The notes beneath the pieces were generated by a model that ran no database searches, was not told the DNA's origin, and saw only the letters and a list, made by a program, of their open reading frames with translations. Both the position numbers and the translations under genes were made by a program. From IMG/VR virus record IMGVR_UViG_3300037585_003884, positions 1-20,375 of that record: 20,375 nt of DNA. The stretch is one strand, 5' to 3'. This DNA is from a virus. Below, piece after piece: positions 1,360 through 17,003 of this stretch (positions within the stretch are counted from its first letter, which is position 1; the number at the start of each line of letters is the position of its first letter).

Positions 1360-2223
1360 TTACTCTTGATCGAACTTGTCAAGAGTTTTTTGTTGTTGTA
1401 TTGCGTTAGTGTGGGCAACGCAGAACCCAAAATCTGGTAAATTTGTTTCGTAAATCGCGTAAGAAATTTTACGATAGGCATTCCTGGGTTTTGTTTTTAG
1501 GATGTCTACCAAACGCTTATGCAACCCTGTTTCACTCTCCAACCGCTTTTCGTTTATACACATATAATAACATAATTCGCGCTCGGTGTCAAGGTCAAAT
1601 AGCCACTTTTCTTCAAGTCTTTTCATATCTAAAAGGGACACTGCTCTTATCTTATTGATATCGCTTGGCTTTGACACATTTCCAATGTGTGGCTCGGTAT
1701 GTGCAAAATAATTTAAGTAATGCACACAAGAATAGACCGTCTCATTAAGAATACTGTAGTACTCTTTTAGATTGATCTCACTGTGGACTCTCTCAATATT
1801 CTCGTTGGAAAAAATAGTTAGGTTTTTAAAAAGGCCTGATCGTGCATATTCCTGTAGCACTCCGAAAGTCGTGTTCTCCACTAATCTTGGCACGCCTGTG
1901 AGCAGTTCGATATCCGGCTTGATGTAGAAAACATCCAGTTGTTTCTCTCTGATCTGCTCTAATACCCCAAGTGTATAAATTGAACTCAGTGAGGAGCCCA
2001 CTACAAAAACCTGCACGTGGTCTTTTAGATTCTTTAAAAACTTTTTAACTCGGGGGGCGTTCTTTTCGTATTCTTCGGGGGTATCGTACGTATTTAACTT
2101 AAACTGCGTCTTTGAGTTCTTCTCGACCTTGCTGTTCATGGTATATACCTCGTATTGCGGCAGATCTGCAAACTTACTTGCGATTGCAGACGCAGCATTG
2201 CCAATTCCGATCACAGAAATCAT
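1360..2223 (-). CDS. Divergent FtsZ/tubulin-like protein
   Basis: A 287-aa protein of unknown function whose layout follows FtsZ. Residues 2-13 (ISVIGIGNAASA) sit where FtsZ has IKVIGVGGGGN (loop T1). Residues 24-30 (YEVYTMN) match the strand FtsZ writes as VEFIAINTD. Residues 71-83 (QVFVVGSSLSSIY) lie where FtsZ has the GTPase signature GGGTGTG, but here it is GSSLSSI. Residues 98-103 (VFYIKP) match VGVVTKPF, and 119-146 match the FtsZ segment ending VIPNDRL. A helix and a loop with GNVSKPSDINKIRAV (181-195) stand near the T7 loop. The degenerate signature suggests altered or lost GTP binding. The ATG overlaps the polymerase stop codon (ATGA), with GGGAG upstream, so the two are probably translationally coupled. 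Phage tubulins such as PhuZ and TubZ organise DNA or phage particles, but this protein cannot be assigned to either. A generic Rossmann-fold protein is the alternative. Confidence 0.6.
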   Translation of the reverse strand: MISVIGIGNAASAIASKFADLPQYEVYTMNSKVEKNSKTQFKLNTYDTPEEYEKNAPRVKKFLKNLKDHVQVFVVGSSLSSIYTLGVLEQIREKQLDVFYIKPDIELLTGVPRLVENTTFGVLQEYARSGLFKNLTIFSNENIERVHSEINLKEYYSILNETVYSCVHYLNYFAHTEPHIGNVSKPSDINKIRAVSLLDMKRLEEKWLFDLDTERELCYYMCINEKRLESETGLHKRLVDILKTKPRNAYRKISYAIYETNLPDFGFCVAHTNAIQQQKTLDKFDQE

Positions 2224-3419
2224 AGGTTTAGGTCTCCCAAATCAAAATAGTTTTGGCCGGCCTTAAGATTGACCATGAATGAGTCCAATTTGTTATTTGA
2301 AAAGACTTCTTTAATTGCCGGCAAAAGAGGGCGGTCCTCATCAGCCAAGTCAATTACCAATTCATCATGTACAATATGTGAAATGTGGCTTTTCGTGTTT
2401 TCTAGCATTTTGTTAATCTCAATTGCCCGGTCGATAACCAGATCCGAAGTTGTGCTTTGGATAAGGTAATTGAATGCTTTTCTTTGTTCCACTTTAATGC
2501 GCCTTCCGAAGATGGTCTTAATATAGCCATCTTTGTAATGTTTGTCAAGAATCAAATTGCGATCATATAGATCGCTCTTGATAATCGTAGAATCAGGATT
2601 GTACAACCACCCAAAAAACAAAGTCTTTGCTTCGTCGCGCGTAGGATTGCGTATATCATTTGATTTGTTGAACACGTTTTCAATGTTCCATTGGTGAATG
2701 TCTTCCTGCGGTTGCGGTTCGCCGAGAAGAGACAGCACCGTCCTTACCTCTGCTCCGTTATAGTCCAATGAAATAAACCAATCGTTTTTAGGCTTTACAA
2801 CCTTTCTGAAATCCTTTTTCATCGTTAAGATGGGGAAAGACCCGGGAGAGGTTGTTAAGCGGCCTGTGACGGTACCAAAGAGGTTGTAATCAATATAGTT
2901 AGCGCCGGAGATAATCTTCTTGATGCCGAGCCTGGAGTTAGTGGCAGTGAACATGCTCTTACAGTCTGAGGCATCGATGTTTAGTGGTCGATATCTGATG
3001 TCATGGATGAGTTTCGAAGCCTCGCACAGAAAATCGTAGTTATTTGGCTTTGTGGTGTTTTCAAATACATGTTGAGTTATCTTATTCTTTATCTCGCAGA
3101 ACTGTAGCAGGGCGTCCTTGGGAATGAGATCGAAGATGCAGTGGTCGTTGAAATCAATCTTTGCTATTGTAAAAGATTTATAAAAAGCGTTCATTTTACG
3201 CACAGTTGCCTCGTACTCTTCAAGTAAATCCGAGGGTGCAGCTTCCTTGAGAGACGACCCGCCAGAATAAAGCCATGCGTATTGTACATCGGAATCTCTT
3301 ACCGAGCCAGTGTACTTCCAAGTTCTGAGTAGATCGGCCGGCATATGTTCAAAGTGAAGTTCTCCATCTTTATAAACACCAACACACTCTGTTTTATCAT
3401 CAAGTGTTTGAAAGTACAT
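2220..3419 (-). CDS. Compact family A DNA polymerase
   Basis: A 399-aa DNA polymerase of the Pol I/T7 family. The palm and fingers motifs are all present. FGTVTGRLTTSPGS (181-194) is the TGR primer-template motif. Motif A is SLDYNGAEVR with catalytic Asp219 and steric-gate Glu224. Motif B is RDEAKTLFFGWLY with Arg261, Lys265, Phe269 and Tyr273. GYIKTIFGRR (298-307) and FNYLIQSTTSDL (316-327) follow. Motif C is HIVHDEL with His351, Asp352 and Glu353. Phe269 is the residue that in E. coli Pol I (Phe762) disfavours dideoxynucleotides. The protein is far shorter than Pol I (928 aa) or T7 polymerase (704 aa). I see no 3'-5' exonuclease domain, and the stretch from motif B to GYIKT is only about 26 residues, so the fingers look trimmed. 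It overlaps the gene before it by 20 bases and the next by 4, with GAGGCGG just before its ATG. It is probably the replicative polymerase, working with the gp32-like SSB; that role is inferred. Confidence 0.9.
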   Translation of the reverse strand: MYFQTLDDKTECVGVYKDGELHFEHMPADLLRTWKYTGSVRDSDVQYAWLYSGGSSLKEAAPSDLLEEYEATVRKMNAFYKSFTIAKIDFNDHCIFDLIPKDALLQFCEIKNKITQHVFENTTKPNNYDFLCEASKLIHDIRYRPLNIDASDCKSMFTATNSRLGIKKIISGANYIDYNLFGTVTGRLTTSPGSFPILTMKKDFRKVVKPKNDWFISLDYNGAEVRTVLSLLGEPQPQEDIHQWNIENVFNKSNDIRNPTRDEAKTLFFGWLYNPDSTIIKSDLYDRNLILDKHYKDGYIKTIFGRRIKVEQRKAFNYLIQSTTSDLVIDRAIEINKMLENTKSHISHIVHDELVIDLADEDRPLLPAIKEVFSNNKLDSFMVNLKAGQNYFDLGDLNL

Positions 3420-9523: not shown

Positions 9524-12100
9524 TCATATGACTGACTCTCCAAATTCCTTCTCAAACACTTCTACCGTCTTGACTGCTATTGGTTCACTATCAAGAGTCA
9601 CGTAGACCTCTACGTTGGGCGCTGCTGGCGCTGGGGCTGCTGCTGCTGTCACTGGGCGCTGGTTCGTTGTTGCGGCTGCTGCAGAGGCTCCTGTGACGAT
9701 AAGAGCGGTACTTGCCAACTTGACTGCTGACACTCCGTCGATTGCATCCATAACCCCTTCAACATCTGCGGTTAGAGGGGTAAGATTGGCTGTGATATTG
9801 ATATTGCTCAGACTGTTCAGCATTTTTATCGCACTCTCAGGGATAGATTCCAGAGCTTCTCCGACTAGGTAGATGCTGGCGGCAATCGCTGTTAGGGCTC
9901 CGGCGCCTGCAGCGGATCCAATAGCGTTAAGGCCTCCCACATCTACTATAAACTTGGCGAGGGCTGCGAGCTTTCCAATATCAATCGAATCAAACATTTT
10001 TGCAAGACCTCCTGCCATATGACCTATTCCTGCCGCGGCTAGCCCCATGCCGGCACCAATCATTACCGCGGCTTTTCCTACTCCTAGGAGGGTAGCAATA
10101 GCCGCGGCTGTGAGAGCGGCTTGAGGTCCCGCAACAAGAGCCATCAATCCAAGAATTAGTAGTCCAAATGCAGCCGTAAACCCAATAATCGCTATTGTGG
10201 CCGGGCCGGCCGCATCACCAAGTCCCTTAAAGGATTGAACCATGTAACTCATACCAAAGGTAGCAAGTCCGATGCCGGCGCCGATGCCGAGGACAGCGGC
10301 GCCGAATGCCGTCAATTGTTTGGCCGAAAAGGCTGCGGCTTGGCCTGAGCCGTACATCAACACCTTTGTAACTCCCATCTGTTTACTCCAAAGCATAATT
10401 TTTGCGATCATTTTTGCGCCAAAGACGAGTAGCATGCCAAATCCGAGCAATTTAAAGTTATCAGCCACTACTTTGACGAAACCAGCCAAAGAGGACAAGG
10501 TTTTACCCAATTCAGTAGTAGGGGCTGTTCCGTCCTTCATCTCGGTGATGACTTCGTGCAAGGCTGTTACAAAGTGAGTAACATCGGGTATTAGCGCGCG
10601 GAGAGAGTTGGTGAACCTATCCATTACATTTTGTTGTTCTTCGGTTCTTTTCTGAAGGTCTATCAAAGATTGTGCCGATTGATTGGTGCTGCCAGCCAAA
10701 TCGTCTATATTACCAGACATCAGCATGGCTAGATCAGTTACGTTGTCAATTCCATCTATGGCACCCACGTAGAAGTTTTTCTCGAAGTAAGACATGCTAT
10801 CAAATGTCTTGCCAGTTTTAAGAATGGCGTCCCGGATCTGCCCGAAGCGTTCTGCTGGCTCTGTGGCCATCAAAAGGTCCATGGCGTTTACGAAGTTGCC
10901 CCCAAGCGCTGCGTTGAGTTGTCCAGCTTGCTTGGCTGCACCCTCGAAGGTGTCAAAATTCTCGGTGATGCGAATAAGCTTCTCAATAGACAGACCAGTG
11001 GCCTTAGAAACTATTGCCAGATCTTTAAATACACTCACTCCGTCGCTTCCAAATTTAGAAACCATATCGCCGGCACTGGCAAAATCTGCCGCCATTTGCT
11101 TGGGAGCTACTCCAATTTGGCGCGCAAGGCCATCGAGTTCGATAACCGCATTCATGGCTTCGCGGCCGCCCATTCCTAAGCTCTTGGTGGCTATCTGGAG
11201 GCCCTTTCCGTAAGCCTCCAGGCCTACACCCGATTTCGCGAGGTAGGCGCCGGTCTGTCCAATCGAAGTCTGAAGATCGATTGACAACATTGTAAAGTCA
11301 GTGAAAACTGGCTGAAGGGCGATGATCGACGCGGACATATCGCCAACCGTTACTCCAAGCTCAATCATCTCCTGGCGAGTCTCCATCAAGGCGTTCCCCT
11401 GTTCGCGAGTAAAGCCTGTCTGCGATATCATGGCAGAAGTGGCCTTATCCATTTCAAGAGTAAGGTTGATAATGGTGTCGATAAGGCCGATACCTATTCC
11501 AATTAGGCCGGCTTGAGCGGTTTTCCAAAGCCCAGCTTTTGCGATCTGTTTGCCCATGCTTATTGCATTCCCGACATTGAGCGAATTATGCTTGCCATAG
11601 AGAGACACCATGCCGGACATTTGCGCTTTTAGGCTTTTGTAGGCGGCTTCTTGCTCTTTTAATTTCTTTATGTCCTTTTCTCGGGCTGCTTCTGCCTTTA
11701 AGAGACCCTTTAATTCTTCTTCCCTCGTAGCGTTAAGCTCTTCGAGATTTTCACCATTCTCTATTAGACTTTGACCTAACTTTTTCCGAAGCTCTATATC
11801 TGCTGCTGTTTTGTCGATTTTCGCTTCTAATGTTTTTATAGCCAGCTTTTTTTCAGCTTCGGCTTTCTTCTCAGCATCAACCATACGTTCGATGTTGCGG
11901 GCCTGAGTCGCTAAAGAATTATTTTGTTTATCAAGGAGTCTGATGCGTTCTTCAAGGCGCGCAATTGCTTCTTTTTCTGCGTTCTCGTCTCTATCCGGAC
12001 CAAAGCCTGCAGGGCCCGAATCAGCAACCCCGCCGGCTTTATTAATAGCAGCAACAATGGCGGCTTTAATCGCTTCTAAATCTGATTTATCGACTGGCAC
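9524..12100 (-). CDS. Tail tape measure protein
   Basis: An 858-aa protein with the usual tape measure build. Residues 30-165 are a long, highly charged coiled coil (Lys, Glu, Ala, Leu). Hydrophobic segments follow near 195-215 and again at about 545-720, the latter Gly/Ala-rich with several possible membrane-inserting stretches such as AGPATIAIIGFTAAFGLLIL. The end is Ala/Pro-rich, then a short acidic tail. Tape measure proteins set tail length and can help DNA enter the cell; about 1.5 angstrom per residue would give a tail near 130 nm (inference). It starts with GTG at 12100-12098, supported by AAGGGA eight bases upstream. It follows the chaperone pair, the classic place for a tape measure gene. 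Confidence 0.9.
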   Translation of the reverse strand: MPVDKSDLEAIKAAIVAAINKAGGVADSGPAGFGPDRDENAEKEAIARLEERIRLLDKQNNSLATQARNIERMVDAEKKAEAEKKLAIKTLEAKIDKTAADIELRKKLGQSLIENGENLEELNATREEELKGLLKAEAAREKDIKKLKEQEAAYKSLKAQMSGMVSLYGKHNSLNVGNAISMGKQIAKAGLWKTAQAGLIGIGIGLIDTIINLTLEMDKATSAMISQTGFTREQGNALMETRQEMIELGVTVGDMSASIIALQPVFTDFTMLSIDLQTSIGQTGAYLAKSGVGLEAYGKGLQIATKSLGMGGREAMNAVIELDGLARQIGVAPKQMAADFASAGDMVSKFGSDGVSVFKDLAIVSKATGLSIEKLIRITENFDTFEGAAKQAGQLNAALGGNFVNAMDLLMATEPAERFGQIRDAILKTGKTFDSMSYFEKNFYVGAIDGIDNVTDLAMLMSGNIDDLAGSTNQSAQSLIDLQKRTEEQQNVMDRFTNSLRALIPDVTHFVTALHEVITEMKDGTAPTTELGKTLSSLAGFVKVVADNFKLLGFGMLLVFGAKMIAKIMLWSKQMGVTKVLMYGSGQAAAFSAKQLTAFGAAVLGIGAGIGLATFGMSYMVQSFKGLGDAAGPATIAIIGFTAAFGLLILGLMALVAGPQAALTAAAIATLLGVGKAAVMIGAGMGLAAAGIGHMAGGLAKMFDSIDIGKLAALAKFIVDVGGLNAIGSAAGAGALTAIAASIYLVGEALESIPESAIKMLNSLSNINITANLTPLTADVEGVMDAIDGVSAVKLASTALIVTGASAAAATTNQRPVTAAAAPAPAAPNVEVYVTLDSEPIAVKTVEVFEKEFGESVI

Positions 12101-12120
12101 AGAAAAGTTCCCTTATTTAG

Positions 12121-12128
12121 TAAATAGT
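12121..12128 (-). promoter_or_regulatory. Candidate late promoter element (ACTATTTA) before tape measure
   Basis: On the coding strand the 10-mer ATACTATTTA ends 20 bases before the GTG start. The 8-mer ACTATTTA recurs in three other gaps before virion genes. The base pattern around it, GATACT before the 8-mer, is loosely like the T4 late promoter TATAAATACT. Here the motif is also part of a short inverted repeat with TAAATA next to it. Promoter role is inference. Confidence 0.4.
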
Positions 12129-12150
12129 ATCAGCAAAAAAAGACAAGGTT

Positions 12151-12483
12151 TTACTCTTGCCCATATTGCTTACTATATGATTTTGATGGGGGAGGCGAGT
12201 TAGACTCCGTCAACACATGCGTCTGGTTGCCGCGGCCTTTGCTGTTGGAAGCGTTCTCAATTGCTTCCTTTTCCGACTCTAATTGTTTAACGAGTCTCTC
12301 AACAAACCATTTACGCAAACCAATGGGCAAGTTGTATGCCTCTGATAATGACCAGCCTCCTGAATATTTTAGGAAGAAGAACTGCTCATATATGTTCTCC
12401 ATATAATCAGGTGTTAGGCCAAAAAAAGTCCGTGGTGAGCGGAACCTCCAATTCGTCCTCATAATCACACTCTGAGCATTCAA
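12151..12483 (-). CDS. Downstream frame of the tail assembly chaperone pair
   Basis: An open frame of 110 codons from a possible TTG at 12483. The protein-like part is FFGLTPDYMENIYEQFFFLK then GGWSLSEAYNLPIGLRKWFV, followed by a charged helix and a Ser/Pro/Gln-rich tail. This pattern is one I recall from small proteins encoded between the gp26-type gene and the tape measure in T4-related phages. The frame overlaps the previous gene by 77 bases. Neither TTG (12483) nor the internal ATGs at codon 8 or in the GLTPDYM segment has a good ribosome-binding site, and the residues before FFGL read as an out-of-frame copy of the upstream gene. It is therefore likely to be made as the tail of a frameshift fusion at 12421-12427. 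Tape measure chaperones made this way bind the tape measure during tail assembly. Confidence 0.75.
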   Translation of the reverse strand: MNAQSVIMRTNWRFRSPRTFFGLTPDYMENIYEQFFFLKYSGGWSLSEAYNLPIGLRKWFVERLVKQLESEKEAIENASNSKGRGNQTHVLTESNSPPPSKSYSKQYGQE

Positions 12484-13267
12484 AGTGCTGGTTTAAGTCG
12501 ACATTGGGGCTGGTTGCCTTATATGCATTACGAAGGTGCCTGGCATCCATGGAGGGGATGTTTTCAACAAGGTAGTTGATTGCCTGCGGGGTCATGTTGC
12601 CGTTGACTCCGATAATCATGTTGACTAGCTGGCGTGTTATGTTACGCTCTAGCTCGTTCTTACTCTTGCGATCATGTTCGATACCGTCAATAAGCCTTTT
12701 CTCGTCGGTGCCATTGAGCAACTTAAAGGTGACGTCCAAGCCTGTTTTAGGAAGCTTGGTGACAAACGTGCCATCGTTGTTATTGGCTGTAACGTATGCC
12801 GCGGCATTTTCGCCGTTATAGACGTTTGCCTTGTTGAGATCAAAACCATACTCTTGTGCTGTACCGCATGCTGGACATGTAACCTTGGTATTGTACTCAT
12901 TACCATAAGCGGAGATTCTGGCCGCAATAATAATTGCGTTTCTGTCTCCCACAAGAATAGAATCCGGATTAATTGCCTTATTCACGATTAAACTAGAAAG
13001 CACGCGATCAATCGCGACACCCTTCTTTAGGAGAGTTCGTGAAGTAAGCATATCTTCTTCTTTTGCGGTCATTTGCTTAATTTCGATTACATCTTTTTGA
13101 TGCAAAGGGTGAGCCGCATGATAGTGGACGCCAGCCGAGGGCAAGTCCACAAATTCAGTTGGAACAATGAATGAAAAATCATTTGATTCCGTGTTTTGGG
13201 TTAATTGTGGTGAAGGGGCCGCATCCATATTTTGAGGACCCCCCACTCTATCACTGTTTCTTGACAA
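12407..13267 (-). CDS. Zinc-ribbon tail/baseplate protein, T4 gp26-type; likely chaperone upstream frame
   Basis: A 286-aa protein. The core begins FSFIVPTEFVDLPSAGVHY and contains IEIKQMTAKEEDMLTSRTLL, SILVGDRNAIIIAARISAYG and a C-terminal ribbon. Two CxxC pairs, CPAC near residue 129 and CSEC near 265, could hold one zinc ion. The pattern fits the T4 baseplate (gp26) family, in which many members precede a tape measure gene and probably act in tail assembly. The start is TTG at 13267-13265, with AAAGAGGT six bases before it. An in-frame ATG at 13228 (codon 14) preceded by a G run is a possible alternative. The last codons, TTDFFWPNT, contain the T-run where ribosomes could shift into the next frame. 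Its own extended -10 promoter lies in the 60-bp gap before it. Confidence 0.8.
   Translation of the reverse strand: MSRNSDRVGGPQNMDAAPSPQLTQNTESNDFSFIVPTEFVDLPSAGVHYHAAHPLHQKDVIEIKQMTAKEEDMLTSRTLLKKGVAIDRVLSSLIVNKAINPDSILVGDRNAIIIAARISAYGNEYNTKVTCPACGTAQEYGFDLNKANVYNGENAAAYVTANNNDGTFVTKLPKTGLDVTFKLLNGTDEKRLIDGIEHDRKSKNELERNITRQLVNMIIGVNGNMTPQAINYLVENIPSMDARHLRNAYKATSPNVDLNQHFECSECDYEDELEVPLTTDFFWPNT
12419..12449 (-). other. Candidate programmed frameshift site (T7 run)
   Basis: The upstream frame reads GAC TTT TTT TGG at 12430-12419; the downstream frame reads ACT TTT TTT GGC. A +1 or -2 shift on the seven T (12427-12421) would join the two frames just before the stop codon at 12409-12407, giving a fusion of about 371-372 aa. 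A Shine-Dalgarno-like GGAGG (12449-12445) lies 17 bases before the run and has no start codon at useful distance, so it may act as a stimulator. The slip itself is inferred. Confidence 0.5.
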
Positions 13268-13299
13268 TATACACCTCTTTAAGTTATTGCAATAGAAAT

Positions 13300-13327: not shown

Positions 13328-13921
13328 CTACGATTGGAAGAAAGTTTGGCTTTCGTTACCGCCGGTGGCGCGTGATGGACCACCCATGGTCTGCAAGCGG
13401 GCCCAGTCATAACGAAGTTCTAAGGAAAGCTCAACCAAGTCATCTGTTCCGTAAGCGAGATCGCCGTACTTCACATCTGAGATGAATGCATTCCAAAGAG
13501 TCCATTTCTCAATCTCGTTGCCATCACCGTCAATCTGTGAGATATAGACAGCACCGAGGGCGCCGGCTGCTCTCGACTTGGACATAGAGCCAAGGGAGTT
13601 GGGGTTAGATGGAGGAGTATAGCCAGAAAGGTTGACGATGTCCGAAAGAGTTGCGGTCATGTCAGGATCACGTGGATCAACCAACGTTACAGTGATTGGA
13701 TTCCAAGTCACAGCGCCAGGGTAGTAGAAAGTGTGATTCAGATACTGATGTTCTGCTGTATTGATAGTGAACGAAGGTTTGTTCACTGTTTTGGCGTACC
13801 ACATAAGTGCTCCGCCCTGGGGGGCACTAATGCCCGTAAATTCGACTTTGAATCTAAACTGACGTTTAGGATCTTTTAGTTGTGTGCTCTCGGCAAAGTT
13901 GTCTGACCAAAATGGTGCCAT
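13328..13921 (-). CDS. gp19: Tail tube protein, T4 gp19-like
   Basis: A 197-aa protein, with AGGAG nine bases before the ATG; T4 gp19 has 163 aa. Family-like features are the N-terminal FRFKVEFTGI, the block GALMWYAKTVNKPSFTI, then HTFYYPGAVTWNPITVTLVD and the closing region with WTLWNAFISDVKYGDLAYG, ELSLELRYDWARLQ. These are the paired beta strands of the tube ring, where WNPITVTLVD is a typical tube-protein signature. Stacked hexamers of this protein form the inner tube of the contractile tail through which DNA passes. It directly follows the sheath gene, as in T4 and relatives. Confidence 0.9.
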   Translation of the reverse strand: MAPFWSDNFAESTQLKDPKRQFRFKVEFTGISAPQGGALMWYAKTVNKPSFTINTAEHQYLNHTFYYPGAVTWNPITVTLVDPRDPDMTATLSDIVNLSGYTPPSNPNSLGSMSKSRAAGALGAVYISQIDGDGNEIEKWTLWNAFISDVKYGDLAYGTDDLVELSLELRYDWARLQTMGGPSRATGGNESQTFFQS

Positions 13922-13967: not shown

Positions 13968-16900
13968 TTAATCATCAAATGATGCGCCGGTTGAAGCAAT
14001 AACGAAGTCAATCGCAATATATTCGATTGAGCGCGCTGGCTTCACCATGATTTTCGCATACATGATGTTTTGATCTACTAGATCGGGGGTGGTTGTTGAC
14101 TCATCAAGAATCAACTTGTAGTCAGAGATACCGAAGTTACTCTTAACATTTGCAAGGAAGGGCTCAACAAGACCTGTAAAGCGGTTCCAAGTAGTCTGTA
14201 CATTCTGTTCGAAGAGAATCTTGGTAGAGATTACTGAAATCTGCTTCTTCAAGTAGATGACAAGTCGTCTTACGTTAATTCTATCAAGTGCGGATTGACG
14301 CTCTTGAAGTGTCTTCTGTCCGAACACTACGATTCCGGTTGATGGGAACGAGGCGATTGGGTTGATAGACGCTTCGTAAAGAAGGTCGCGCTCTTTCGAT
14401 GTAAGTTTTTCTGTTACTGCGCTGATTGGGATACCAGCAGCACCTTCTGAGAGGCCACCGCGGTTGAAGCCGGCTGGTGCAAACCAAAGTTGTGCTTTAC
14501 GCTCAGAACTGGCCAGCACACCAAGCATTGCTGCGGATGGTGGAAGCCATACTGCGGCGCCCGTGTTCTCATCGCGAGTCTGGACCCATGGGTAGAATGT
14601 TGCACCGTATGAAGAGTCGATTCTTCGATCCTTCAAAGATGTTGCAGCACCCTGTGGGGTTGTTCCAATTCGACTAGCCTTATCAGCGTAGTATGCTTCC
14701 GCGGTTGGAAGATATACACTTGGAAGGTCGATAAGAGCCATCGTGTCTGCGCGGTCTTCACATACACTAATCATATGCTGTGTAAGCGATGCGTTTGTTA
14801 AGCCCGGTGCAGCCATCAGGTTCATATCCACTGATTCTGGATCGCCAACTGTGTCGATTGCGCGTTTAAGCGTGTAGTAAGCAGAACTGTTACGCTCTGT
14901 TGCTGCGGCGCCCATACCATTGTTATAGAGTGGATCGGGAAGCTTGATGTCGAATCCATCGAATCCACCGAACAATGGTGCAGTGAAGCTGTTGTATCCG
15001 AGGTCAAGCAGGGCCTTGTAGCCGTTAACTGCGGAGTACGAAGTTCCAGCGCCGCGGGATCCCGATCTGTAGAACATGTTGTTGCTACTATCAGGACTCA
15101 CCAAGTTGTCAAGAGAGAAGATATACGAGAAACCGTCGATTCCAGTAATTCCGCCAGTAGAAGGATCTGACTGAAGGGCGCTTTGTGCCGAAAGCAGGCG
15201 TTGTACGCCTGGAGTGCTCGGATCAAAGCGGTTAGAGCCAGAGCCGCGCGTTGGAGAGAATCCAAAGTATGCCTTTGAGGGGTCGCTGATTCCGCCATCG
15301 GAAGCAGAGAGCCTAAGGCTAACGCTAGGCATGATTAGGTCCATTTGTATGTCCGCAGAGTCATCGGCGTTCGTGGCAGTTATGGTGCCGACGCCTAGGC
15401 CGCCGCTGAGGCAGAATGTGCCGTTGACGCCTCCCCAAGCAAGAGTCTCACCGGTGTCACCGAGAGAAGATCCCGTCGCCAGGGTCACAAAGATGTTAGA
15501 ATCGGCAGGACCCAGGCGTCTTTCGCCCGAAAGGTTAGTGGCCGTGGGGATTATGCTGCCAGTAGCGCTGATGATGATTTTGTTAGCGTCTTTGTATTTT
15601 GGTGGGCCGTAGTAACCGAATGGAAGCAATGTTTCCATGCCGGATGCGCCGGCTTCGACCTCGACATTCATGTCGACATATACATACTTGGATTGGTTAG
15701 GGTATTCACCATATAATTTAAGGCGTTTTTCCGTTTCGTCCCATACTTGATATTGATCTCCAACTTTCCGTGAAAGGAAGTTAGGAGAAGTAGGATCAAG
15801 ACTGCATTCGTCGAATCTTTCAAGAACCTGAACAGCGTTGTCTGAATCATCGATACGACGGATTAACACCGAGAATGTTCCGTAGTCGGTTGTGCTAGTG
15901 TTGGACTGGCGAATGTTGGAGATCGAAATTTTAACGTTATCGCTCAACCATGCGCCATGGCCGCGGCCGATTAATCGGAACAGCTTAGTTGCATCGCGCT
16001 GGATGCTGAACTCATCATAGAGGCCTGTATCTTGTGCGACGAACCAGCCGGCTTTCGCTTCATTGGCCGATACACCGGTCATATTTCCAGGAGAAGTGGT
16101 TTTGGAACCAGACAGGTGAAGTGCCACGATAACGCCAGCAAGGGGAGACGCTGCGTCGGTACTCTTGTCGTTTAGAAAGTCGCGAGTCTCTTGTTCATAG
16201 GACTCACCAAGCCAGTAATCTTTCTCTGCAGATGTTGGGTAGAAGTTACCCGAAACATACAGTTGAGGGTTGGTGTTGAACACCTTGCGGATGAACTTGT
16301 TACTGTTGTCGTCGAGGCTGAAGTCATAGAGTGTCTTGGTGCCATCACCTGCGGTGTGAGCAGCCTTAAAGACACCGTTAGCATCAGAAAGAATCACTGC
16401 ACCGACGCCTTCAGCGTTTTGGCGGCCATCAGCCGCGGCGCCAGAACCGATAAGAGTTCCTGAAAGGGCCATTAGTCCTGCTTCCAGATACCAAACTGCA
16501 GCTAAACTGCCCGTTGGGCCGGTGATGTCGGCCATTGATGCGGTACCATGCATGGTCCCTGAAGGTATAACAAACAAACCAAATGCTCCACCACCATGGG
16601 TGTTGTCTAACAGTAGTTCTGTTCTCCAGCCGGCCTGCTCTCCGAAGTGCGGAGAAGTAACATCGTCAGCATTAGGGTGCTGGTGACCAAGTGTACGGAT
16701 ATATGTGGCGGGGGCCACGCCGGGTGCTAAGAACGCCTTGGCGCCATAGAGACCATAGATGGGGGACTGGGTTGAGAGCCCGTTACGGTAAACATCTCCA
16801 CCGGCTCCACCGGGGACTGTTTCACCGAACATAGCTACAAAGTCGGAATAGGCCTCAGCCTTAACTGGCTGCATCGCCAAGCCTTTTGGCGCTCGGCCGA

Positions 16901-17003
16901 TAATAACCGGTCCGATAGTATCGGGGGTTCTGGGTATAAAGGAGTTATCAATCTCGTTGATAAAAACTCCGGGGGAAACAAACTTAAATTTCTTTACTGA
17001 CAT
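13968..17003 (-). CDS. gp18: Tail sheath protein, T4 gp18-like, very long form
   Basis: A 1011-aa sheath protein; T4 gp18 has 659 aa. The N-terminus FKFVSPGVFINEIDNSFIPR and following GPVIIGRAPKGLAMQPVK is the standard sheath start, followed by FVAMFGE. The C-terminal third carries the conserved domain: YGATFYPWVQTRDENTG, WLPPSAAMLGVLASSER, a stretch ending FGQKTLQERQSALDRINVRR, LVIYLKKQISV, and IMVKPARSIEYIAIDFVIA. Between them, about residues 100-700 hold extra beta-rich, Gly/Ser/Asp-rich material that probably forms domains on the outside of the sheath. Sheath subunits contract on binding and drive the tube through the host envelope. The start is ATG at 17003 with GAGGA about 11 bases before it. 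It follows gp15 directly, where T4 has terminase genes 16 and 17 between 15 and 18. Confidence 0.93.
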   Translation of the reverse strand: MSVKKFKFVSPGVFINEIDNSFIPRTPDTIGPVIIGRAPKGLAMQPVKAEAYSDFVAMFGETVPGGAGGDVYRNGLSTQSPIYGLYGAKAFLAPGVAPATYIRTLGHQHPNADDVTSPHFGEQAGWRTELLLDNTHGGGAFGLFVIPSGTMHGTASMADITGPTGSLAAVWYLEAGLMALSGTLIGSGAAADGRQNAEGVGAVILSDANGVFKAAHTAGDGTKTLYDFSLDDNSNKFIRKVFNTNPQLYVSGNFYPTSAEKDYWLGESYEQETRDFLNDKSTDAASPLAGVIVALHLSGSKTTSPGNMTGVSANEAKAGWFVAQDTGLYDEFSIQRDATKLFRLIGRGHGAWLSDNVKISISNIRQSNTSTTDYGTFSVLIRRIDDSDNAVQVLERFDECSLDPTSPNFLSRKVGDQYQVWDETEKRLKLYGEYPNQSKYVYVDMNVEVEAGASGMETLLPFGYYGPPKYKDANKIIISATGSIIPTATNLSGERRLGPADSNIFVTLATGSSLGDTGETLAWGGVNGTFCLSGGLGVGTITATNADDSADIQMDLIMPSVSLRLSASDGGISDPSKAYFGFSPTRGSGSNRFDPSTPGVQRLLSAQSALQSDPSTGGITGIDGFSYIFSLDNLVSPDSSNNMFYRSGSRGAGTSYSAVNGYKALLDLGYNSFTAPLFGGFDGFDIKLPDPLYNNGMGAAATERNSSAYYTLKRAIDTVGDPESVDMNLMAAPGLTNASLTQHMISVCEDRADTMALIDLPSVYLPTAEAYYADKASRIGTTPQGAATSLKDRRIDSSYGATFYPWVQTRDENTGAAVWLPPSAAMLGVLASSERKAQLWFAPAGFNRGGLSEGAAGIPISAVTEKLTSKERDLLYEASINPIASFPSTGIVVFGQKTLQERQSALDRINVRRLVIYLKKQISVISTKILFEQNVQTTWNRFTGLVEPFLANVKSNFGISDYKLILDESTTTPDLVDQNIMYAKIMVKPARSIEYIAIDFVIASTGASFDD

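What the first reader, a model, noticed from the sequence alone, without database searches (positions are those of the whole stretch)
12407..12483. Frameshift fusion of the tail assembly chaperone pair on a T7 run
The gp26-type frame and the next frame overlap by 77 bases. The residues FFGL of the second frame begin exactly at the run of seven T where the first frame reads FFW. The second frame has no good ribosome-binding site, and a GGAGG without a start codon lies 17 bases before the run. The shift needed is +1 or -2, unlike the common -1 in lambda. Tail chaperone frameshifts are well known, but their use with a gp26-type zinc-ribbon protein is less so.
Basis: partly seen in the sequence, partly recalled or inferred. 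Interest (0 to 1): 0.65.

Follow-up and report, generated by a model that had tools for sequence, protein, structure and literature searches.

The report
+1 frameshift in phage tail chaperone
In a T4-related virus of bacteria, the ribosome very probably skips one base at a run of T to join two overlapping genes into one longer tail-building protein, and about 240 related viruses keep the same arrangement, often with an RNA hairpin just before the skip.

Summary
On the - strand the gp26-type gene (12407-13267; PF12322 T4_baseplate, E 6e-18) is overlapped in the +1 frame by a second coding frame, entered at GAC TTT TTT TGG (T-run 12421-12427). In 237 of 238 relatives (181 distinct junctions) the second frame is also +1, stays open for 65-114 codons, and is conserved from exactly the GGC after the T-run. 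Two loci have no ATG/GTG/TTG in the whole frame. Site variants (TTC TTT TGG, TTT CTT TGG, TTT CTA TGG) fit a +1 slip and argue against -2 and transcriptional slippage. T4 gp26 and gp51 both match the same family, so the pair is the short (TAC-N) and long (TAC-NC) tail assembly chaperone. Other T4-like phages examined put the second domain in the -1 frame, so the direction is reversed here. New here: a 5' stem-loop ending at the slip site is favoured across the group (p = 1e-4, 48 representatives), though weak in the window itself; a conserved GGAGGT lies just 5' of it in the window's clade. Known kind, apparently new variant. Not tested experimentally.

The parts
12407..13267 (-). gp26-type gene = TAC-N (286 aa, TTG start, TGA stop at 12407-12409)
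   Evidence: PF12322 E 6e-18, phrog_150 E 5e-20; TTG start preceded by invariant GAGGTG in the clade
12151..12420 (-). TAC-C: +1-frame extension of 89 codons plus stop (GLTPDY...YGQE), made as a fusion to TAC-N (371 aa in all)
   Evidence: Open in +1 in 237/238 loci; pN/pS 0.13 in this frame; many relatives lack a start codon
12419..12427 (-). slip site TTT TTT TGG (P-site UUU re-pairs +1 to UUU; waiting A-site codon UGG)
   Evidence: Second TTT codon 58/58 in the window's clade; 139 of 181 distinct junctions TTTTTTTGG
12444..12450 (-). internal Shine-Dalgarno-like TGGAGGT, its GGAGG 17 nt before the T-run
   Evidence: GAG codon 58/58 although GAA is the commoner Glu codon in gp26; mean anti-SD energy -11.3 against background -0.2 kcal/mol
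12429..12443 (-). 5' stem-loop UCCG(CUCACCA)CGGA; weak in the window, stronger (CCGC..GCGG) in most of the clade
   Evidence: 27-nt window ending at the slip has the lowest mean MFE of 191 gp26 windows in each of three clades; window itself only -3.4 kcal/mol, rank 91 of 272
13328..13921 (-). tail tube (gp19-like), upstream neighbour
   Evidence: phrog_4542 E 4e-26
13968..17003 (-). tail sheath, upstream neighbour
   Evidence: phrog_23 E 2e-68
9524..12100 (-). probable tape measure protein, the expected client of the chaperones
   Evidence: Position, length 858 aa, coiled-coil start; no family match; only weak similarity to the corresponding ORF of Mel-JY01

Best explanation
The locus is a tail assembly chaperone cassette decoded by programmed +1 ribosomal frameshifting. 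Most ribosomes read gp26 to its own stop and make TAC-N. A minority, with peptidyl-tRNA-Phe on UUU (or tRNA-Leu on CUU in relatives) and the sense codon UGG waiting in the A site, slip one base forward and read on through the second frame, making TAC-NC (...TTDFF-GLTPDY..., 371 aa). By analogy with lambda gpG/gpGT, the N part would coat the tape measure protein and the C part would recruit tail tube subunits. A stem-loop that refolds as it leaves the ribosome just 5' of the slip, with an SD-like GGAGGU before it, probably favours forward and opposes backward slippage. Shown by sequence: conserved +1 frame, slip site, absence of starts, coding selection in the +1 frame, stem-loop trend. Inferred: that slippage occurs, its efficiency, the chaperone function, and the role of the stem-loop and SD.
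For: +1 relation and slip site in 237/238 loci, 181 distinct; six of seven distant annotated phages and eight MAG loci are also +1. Nineteen distinct loci have no ATG/GTG/TTG from the upstream stop to 20 codons past the slip, and L113 and L141 have none in the whole frame. Synonymous constraint peaks at the slip; pN/pS 0.13/0.21/0.30 in the +1 frame only. T4 gp26 (208 aa) and gp51 (249 aa) both match PF12322 along their length, gp51 with an extra C-terminal tail, i.e. a short/long pair. Gene order sheath-tube-gp26-ORF-long ORF. Stem-loop: lowest-MFE window in three clades; 48 representatives, Wilcoxon p 9.7e-5, nine control positions not significant. An upstream hairpin next to the slip stimulates +1 and attenuates -1 frameshifting on 70S ribosomes (PMC6321510).
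Against: No expression, ribosome-profiling or proteomic data. The window's own stem is weak, and L086 and L088 lack a convincing one. In most of the window's clade an ATG lies six codons after the slip, so separate reinitiation cannot be excluded there. One relative (L085) has a TAATG arrangement in the -1 frame instead. Tape measure identity rests on position.
Confidence: 0.9

Rival explanations
1. TAC-C is an independent gene expressed by termination-reinitiation at the ATG just after the gp26 stop (TGATTATATG), with no fusion.
For: The window and most of its clade have this ATG six codons after the slip.
Against: The ATG is ATA, ATT or GTA in several distinct clade members (seven have no ATG in the whole stretch) and is absent at this place in the other two clades; L075, L113 and L141 lack usable starts. 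Conservation of the second frame begins at GL(T/S), before the ATG, and the slip-site codons are constrained.
Confidence: 0.06
2. Programmed -2 ribosomal frameshifting on the T-run (as in phage Mu) rather than +1.
For: The frame relation alone does not distinguish +1 from -2, and T7 permits re-pairing both ways.
Against: Variants TTC TTT TGG, TTT CTT TGG and TTT CTA TGG allow good +1 re-pairing but poor -2 re-pairing.
Confidence: 0.04
3. RNA polymerase slippage on the T-run makes mixed mRNAs, and ordinary translation gives the two proteins.
For: Runs of seven T can be slippery for some polymerases.
Against: 40 of 181 distinct junctions keep the frame relation although their longest T-run is only three to six (TTTCTATGG, TTTCTTTGG, TTTCTTTAC, TTCTTTTGG, CTTTTTTGG).
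Confidence: 0.03
4. The overlap is a sequencing or assembly error in a homopolymer; the real gene is one continuous frame.
For: Homopolymer errors are common.
Against: Same frame relation in about 240 assemblies and in isolate genomes (Mel-JY01, immuto, SP-15), including versions without a T7 run; the frame-0 end WP(N/D) is itself conserved.
Confidence: 0.01

Closest known systems
T4-like tail assembly chaperones gp26/gp51 (Vladimirov, Gautam, Davidson 2022, Virology 566:9-15; paper not held, known here through PMC10885494 and PMC12846349 and from memory)
   Same: Same protein family PF12322; short and long forms; same place near the tape measure gene
   Different: T4 makes the two forms from separate genes; the T4-like phages examined here (P-SSM5, LG08, RL38J1, VmeM-32, S13) place TAC-C in the -1 frame at GATTTTTT or similar, whereas the window's lineage uses +1
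lambda gpG/gpGT and the conserved tail frameshift of long-tailed phages (Xu et al. 2004, 2013; reviewed in PMC5009743)
   Same: Two-domain chaperone, overlap near the 3' end, slippery site, position before the tape measure gene
   Different: lambda uses -1; +1 is reported for few phages, e.g. very likely haloarchaeal HSTV-2 (PMC5009743)
prfB (RF2) +1 frameshift
   Same: UUU or CUU in the P site followed by U (CUU U in the immuto-like clade); internal SD-like sequence upstream
   Different: A-site codon is sense UGG, not UGA; SD lies 17 nt upstream with a stem-loop between, not about 3 nt
Listeria phage PSA +1 frameshifts (PMC5009743)
   Same: +1 frameshifting in phage structural genes
   Different: On a proline codon in capsid and tail-shaft genes, not in the chaperone
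Upstream refolding hairpins that stimulate +1 frameshifting (PMC6321510)
   Same: Hairpin immediately 5' of a +1 site
   Different: Those tested on 70S ribosomes were constructs; here the hairpin is evolutionarily favoured in a phage gene

Membership tests
Frameshifted tail assembly chaperone cassette (gpG/gpGT type) | Lies between the tail tube gene and the tape measure gene | tested here: inconclusive
   Tube directly upstream by family match; the 858-aa downstream ORF fits a tape measure protein by position and size only
Frameshifted tail assembly chaperone cassette (gpG/gpGT type) | Second ORF overlaps the first in a different frame, without a needed start of its own | tested here: met
Frameshifted tail assembly chaperone cassette (gpG/gpGT type) | Conserved slip site with nucleotide-level constraint | tested here: met
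Frameshifted tail assembly chaperone cassette (gpG/gpGT type) | Both short and long proteins are made, the long one as a minority | not testable with these tools
   Needs reporter or proteomics
PF12322 T4_baseplate (gp26/gp51) | Profile match above the curated cut-off | tested here: met
   65.8 bits against cut-off 24.5
Canonical -1 slippery heptamer X XXY YYZ | Downstream domain lies in the -1 frame | tested here: not met
   Second frame is +1; in the window the -1 frame runs into a stop two codons on (TTG GCC TAA)
prfB-type +1 site | Stop codon waiting in the A site | tested here: not met
   A site is UGG in 178 of 181 distinct junctions and UAC in three
PF20546 DUF6760 (for TAC-C) | Profile match above the curated cut-off | tested here: not met
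   16.5 bits against cut-off 27

The most novel reading that the evidence does not exclude
A widespread lineage of T4-related phages has reversed the direction of the tail chaperone frameshift from -1 to +1 at the same place in the gene. It does so with a natural stimulator not described before for bacterial ribosomes: a refolding 5' stem-loop, in the window's clade preceded by an internal Shine-Dalgarno sequence, acting on UUU/CUU with a sense UGG codon in the A site.
Probability: 0.45. Interest if true: 0.65.

Novelty: new variant of a known kind. Interest (0 to 1): 0.52.

Why it matters
It gives roughly 240 natural sequences of one +1 frameshift signal, in several slip-codon versions, in the same gene that other T4-like phages shift -1. 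That makes the question of what sets the direction of ribosome slippage directly testable. It also corrects annotation: the second domain is missing or reduced to 37-39 aa fragments in the isolate phages immuto, SP-15 and LIS04, and gp26-type genes labelled 'baseplate hub' are better called tail assembly chaperones.

Tried and rejected
Downstream stimulatory structure: windows 3' of the slip are not reliably more structured than gp26 itself in the window's clade; rejected as a main element. Rfam: no meaningful match over 12100-12700. Helix covariation: in the window's clade the stem is mostly invariant, so compensatory changes are few; in the immuto-like clade one pair occurs as five standard types; hence the synonymous-resampling test was used instead. 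Solved-structure search with the fusion profile found no relative. hhalign of TAC-C with the T4 gp51 tail aligns the expected stretch (gp51 221-245) but at E 0.07: suggestive only. The DUF6760 match of TAC-C is below cut-off and not used. The Vladimirov 2022 paper is not in the library, so whether it already notes +1 cases could not be checked.

Full report
The window is a 20,375-base virus record with its main genes on the - strand: sheath (13968-17003), tube (13328-13921), a gp26-type gene (12407-13267), a short second frame (12151-12483), then a long ORF (9524-12100) that is probably the tape measure protein.

Observation. The - strand reads GAG GTT CCG CTC ACC ACG GAC TTT TTT TGG CCT AAC ACC TGA in the gp26 frame, and CGG ACT TTT TTT GGC CTA ACA CCT GAT TAT ATG in the second frame. 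Going from the first to the second needs +1 (or -2).

Relatives. A protein search gave 80 loci in viral contigs. Searches from two distant isolates, Microcystis phage Mel-JY01 and Flavobacterium phage immuto, gave 160 more. Of 238 loci with a readable gp26 stop, 237 show the same +1 arrangement with the same kind of site; the remaining one, the SP-15 copy L249, is also +1 but with TTT TTT CAC. These 237 make 181 distinct junctions: TTTTTTTGG 139, TTTCTTTGG 27, TTCTTTTGG 6, CTTTTTTGG 3, TTTCTATGG 3, TTTTTTTAC 2, TTTCTTTAC 1. Among annotated phages, Mel-JY01, immuto, Bacillus phage SP-15, Listeria phage LIS04, Streptococcus phage GXN1 and the large phage LR756508 have the second domain in +1 after UUU or CUU; only LR756511 differs, with TAATG in the -1 frame. 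Eight loci in WOR-3, Flavobacteriales and other MAGs are +1 as well.

Selection. The DNA after the slip evolves as protein in the +1 frame only: pN/pS 0.13, 0.21 and 0.30 in the three clades, against 1.1-2.6 in the other frames. Conservation of the second frame starts at the GGC codon following the T-run, while residues further upstream in that frame vary freely. In frame 0, codon choice around the slip gives the first (Mel-JY-like), first (immuto-like) and second (window's clade) most constrained seven-codon window of the gene; the only stronger one, in the window's clade, is the gene start.

No separate start. Nineteen distinct loci have no ATG, GTG or TTG from the upstream stop to 20 codons past the slip, and L113 and L141 have none in the whole second frame. 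The ATG six codons after the slip in the window's clade is replaced by ATA, ATT or GTA in some members. Rarer start codons were not excluded.

Direction. With TTC TTT TGG only the second codon can slip, by +1 (UUU to UUU); -2 would place UCU. With TTT CTT TGG a +1 slip gives UUC or the prfB-like CUU to UUU. With TTT CTA TGG only UUU to UUC works. One rule, +1, covers all; -2 does not. The longest T-run is only three to six in 40 of 181 junctions, which also speaks against transcriptional slippage. This reasoning is inference from pairing rules.

Upstream elements. In the window's clade TGGAGGT is invariant (GAG 58/58 where GAA makes up 57% of Glu codons). Immediately 3' of it and ending one or two bases before the T-run is a stem-loop, CCGC(TNNNN)GCGG in most members, with alternatives such as TGCC(ACTTAC)GGCA in L008. 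The 27-nt window ending at the slip has the lowest mean folding energy of 191 gp26 windows in each of the three clades; against synonymous resampling the mean z is -2.80, -1.17 and -0.91, controls -0.24, -0.18 and -0.07 (in the Mel-JY-like clade one control window was lower). On 48 representatives under 70% identical, slip windows have mean z -1.08, p 9.7e-5, while nine control positions are not significant. LR756508 has a perfect seven-pair stem (-11.2 kcal/mol, rank 1 of 237), but the window's own stem is weak (-3.4, rank 91 of 272), and LIS04 and GXN1 show none that is convincing. An upstream hairpin next to the slip is known from constructs to stimulate +1 and attenuate -1 shifting on bacterial ribosomes (PMC6321510). 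That fits a U7 site, which would otherwise invite -1. That the hairpin brings the GGAGGU closer to the P site is my conjecture.

Function. T4 gp26 (208 aa) and gp51 (249 aa) both match PF12322 along their length, gp51 with an extra tail. Published work cited in PMC10885494 and PMC12846349 (Vladimirov et al. 2022) describes T4-like tail assembly chaperones as a short and a long form. The window's pair is therefore most likely TAC-N and TAC-NC. In P-SSM5, LG08, RL38J1, VmeM-32 and S13 the C domain lies in the -1 frame, so the lineage studied here uses the opposite direction at the corresponding place.

Verdict. A real, strongly conserved programmed frameshift, almost certainly +1. The kind is known; the direction in gp26-type chaperones and the upstream stem-loop appear new. 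Nothing here has been tested at the bench.

Noticed in passing
13265-13277 and loci of the window's clade: gp26 starts with TTG behind a near-invariant GAGGTGTATATTG in the clade members listed; the start region is the only part of the gene more synonymously constrained than the slip site, hinting at tuned initiation.
   Followed up: partly
2220-3419 (-): A 399-aa family A DNA polymerase-like protein (PF00476) lies near the tail genes; it looks short for a full polymerase and overlaps the next ORF at 3400-3419.
   Followed up: no
L084 4720-4983, L087 4678-4897, L088 4660-4891: Public annotations of immuto, SP-15 and LIS04 leave a gap or a 37-39 aa fragment where the +1-frame chaperone domain lies.
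   Followed up: partly
L085 4798-4950: LR756511 has a longer gp26 C-terminus and a TAATG start for a similar second ORF (MDEQFFFLYHLH...) in the -1 frame: a possible non-frameshifting version.
   Followed up: no
13968-17003 (-): The tail sheath is unusually large (1011 aa), with Pfam domain matches only in its C-terminal third.
   Followed up: no
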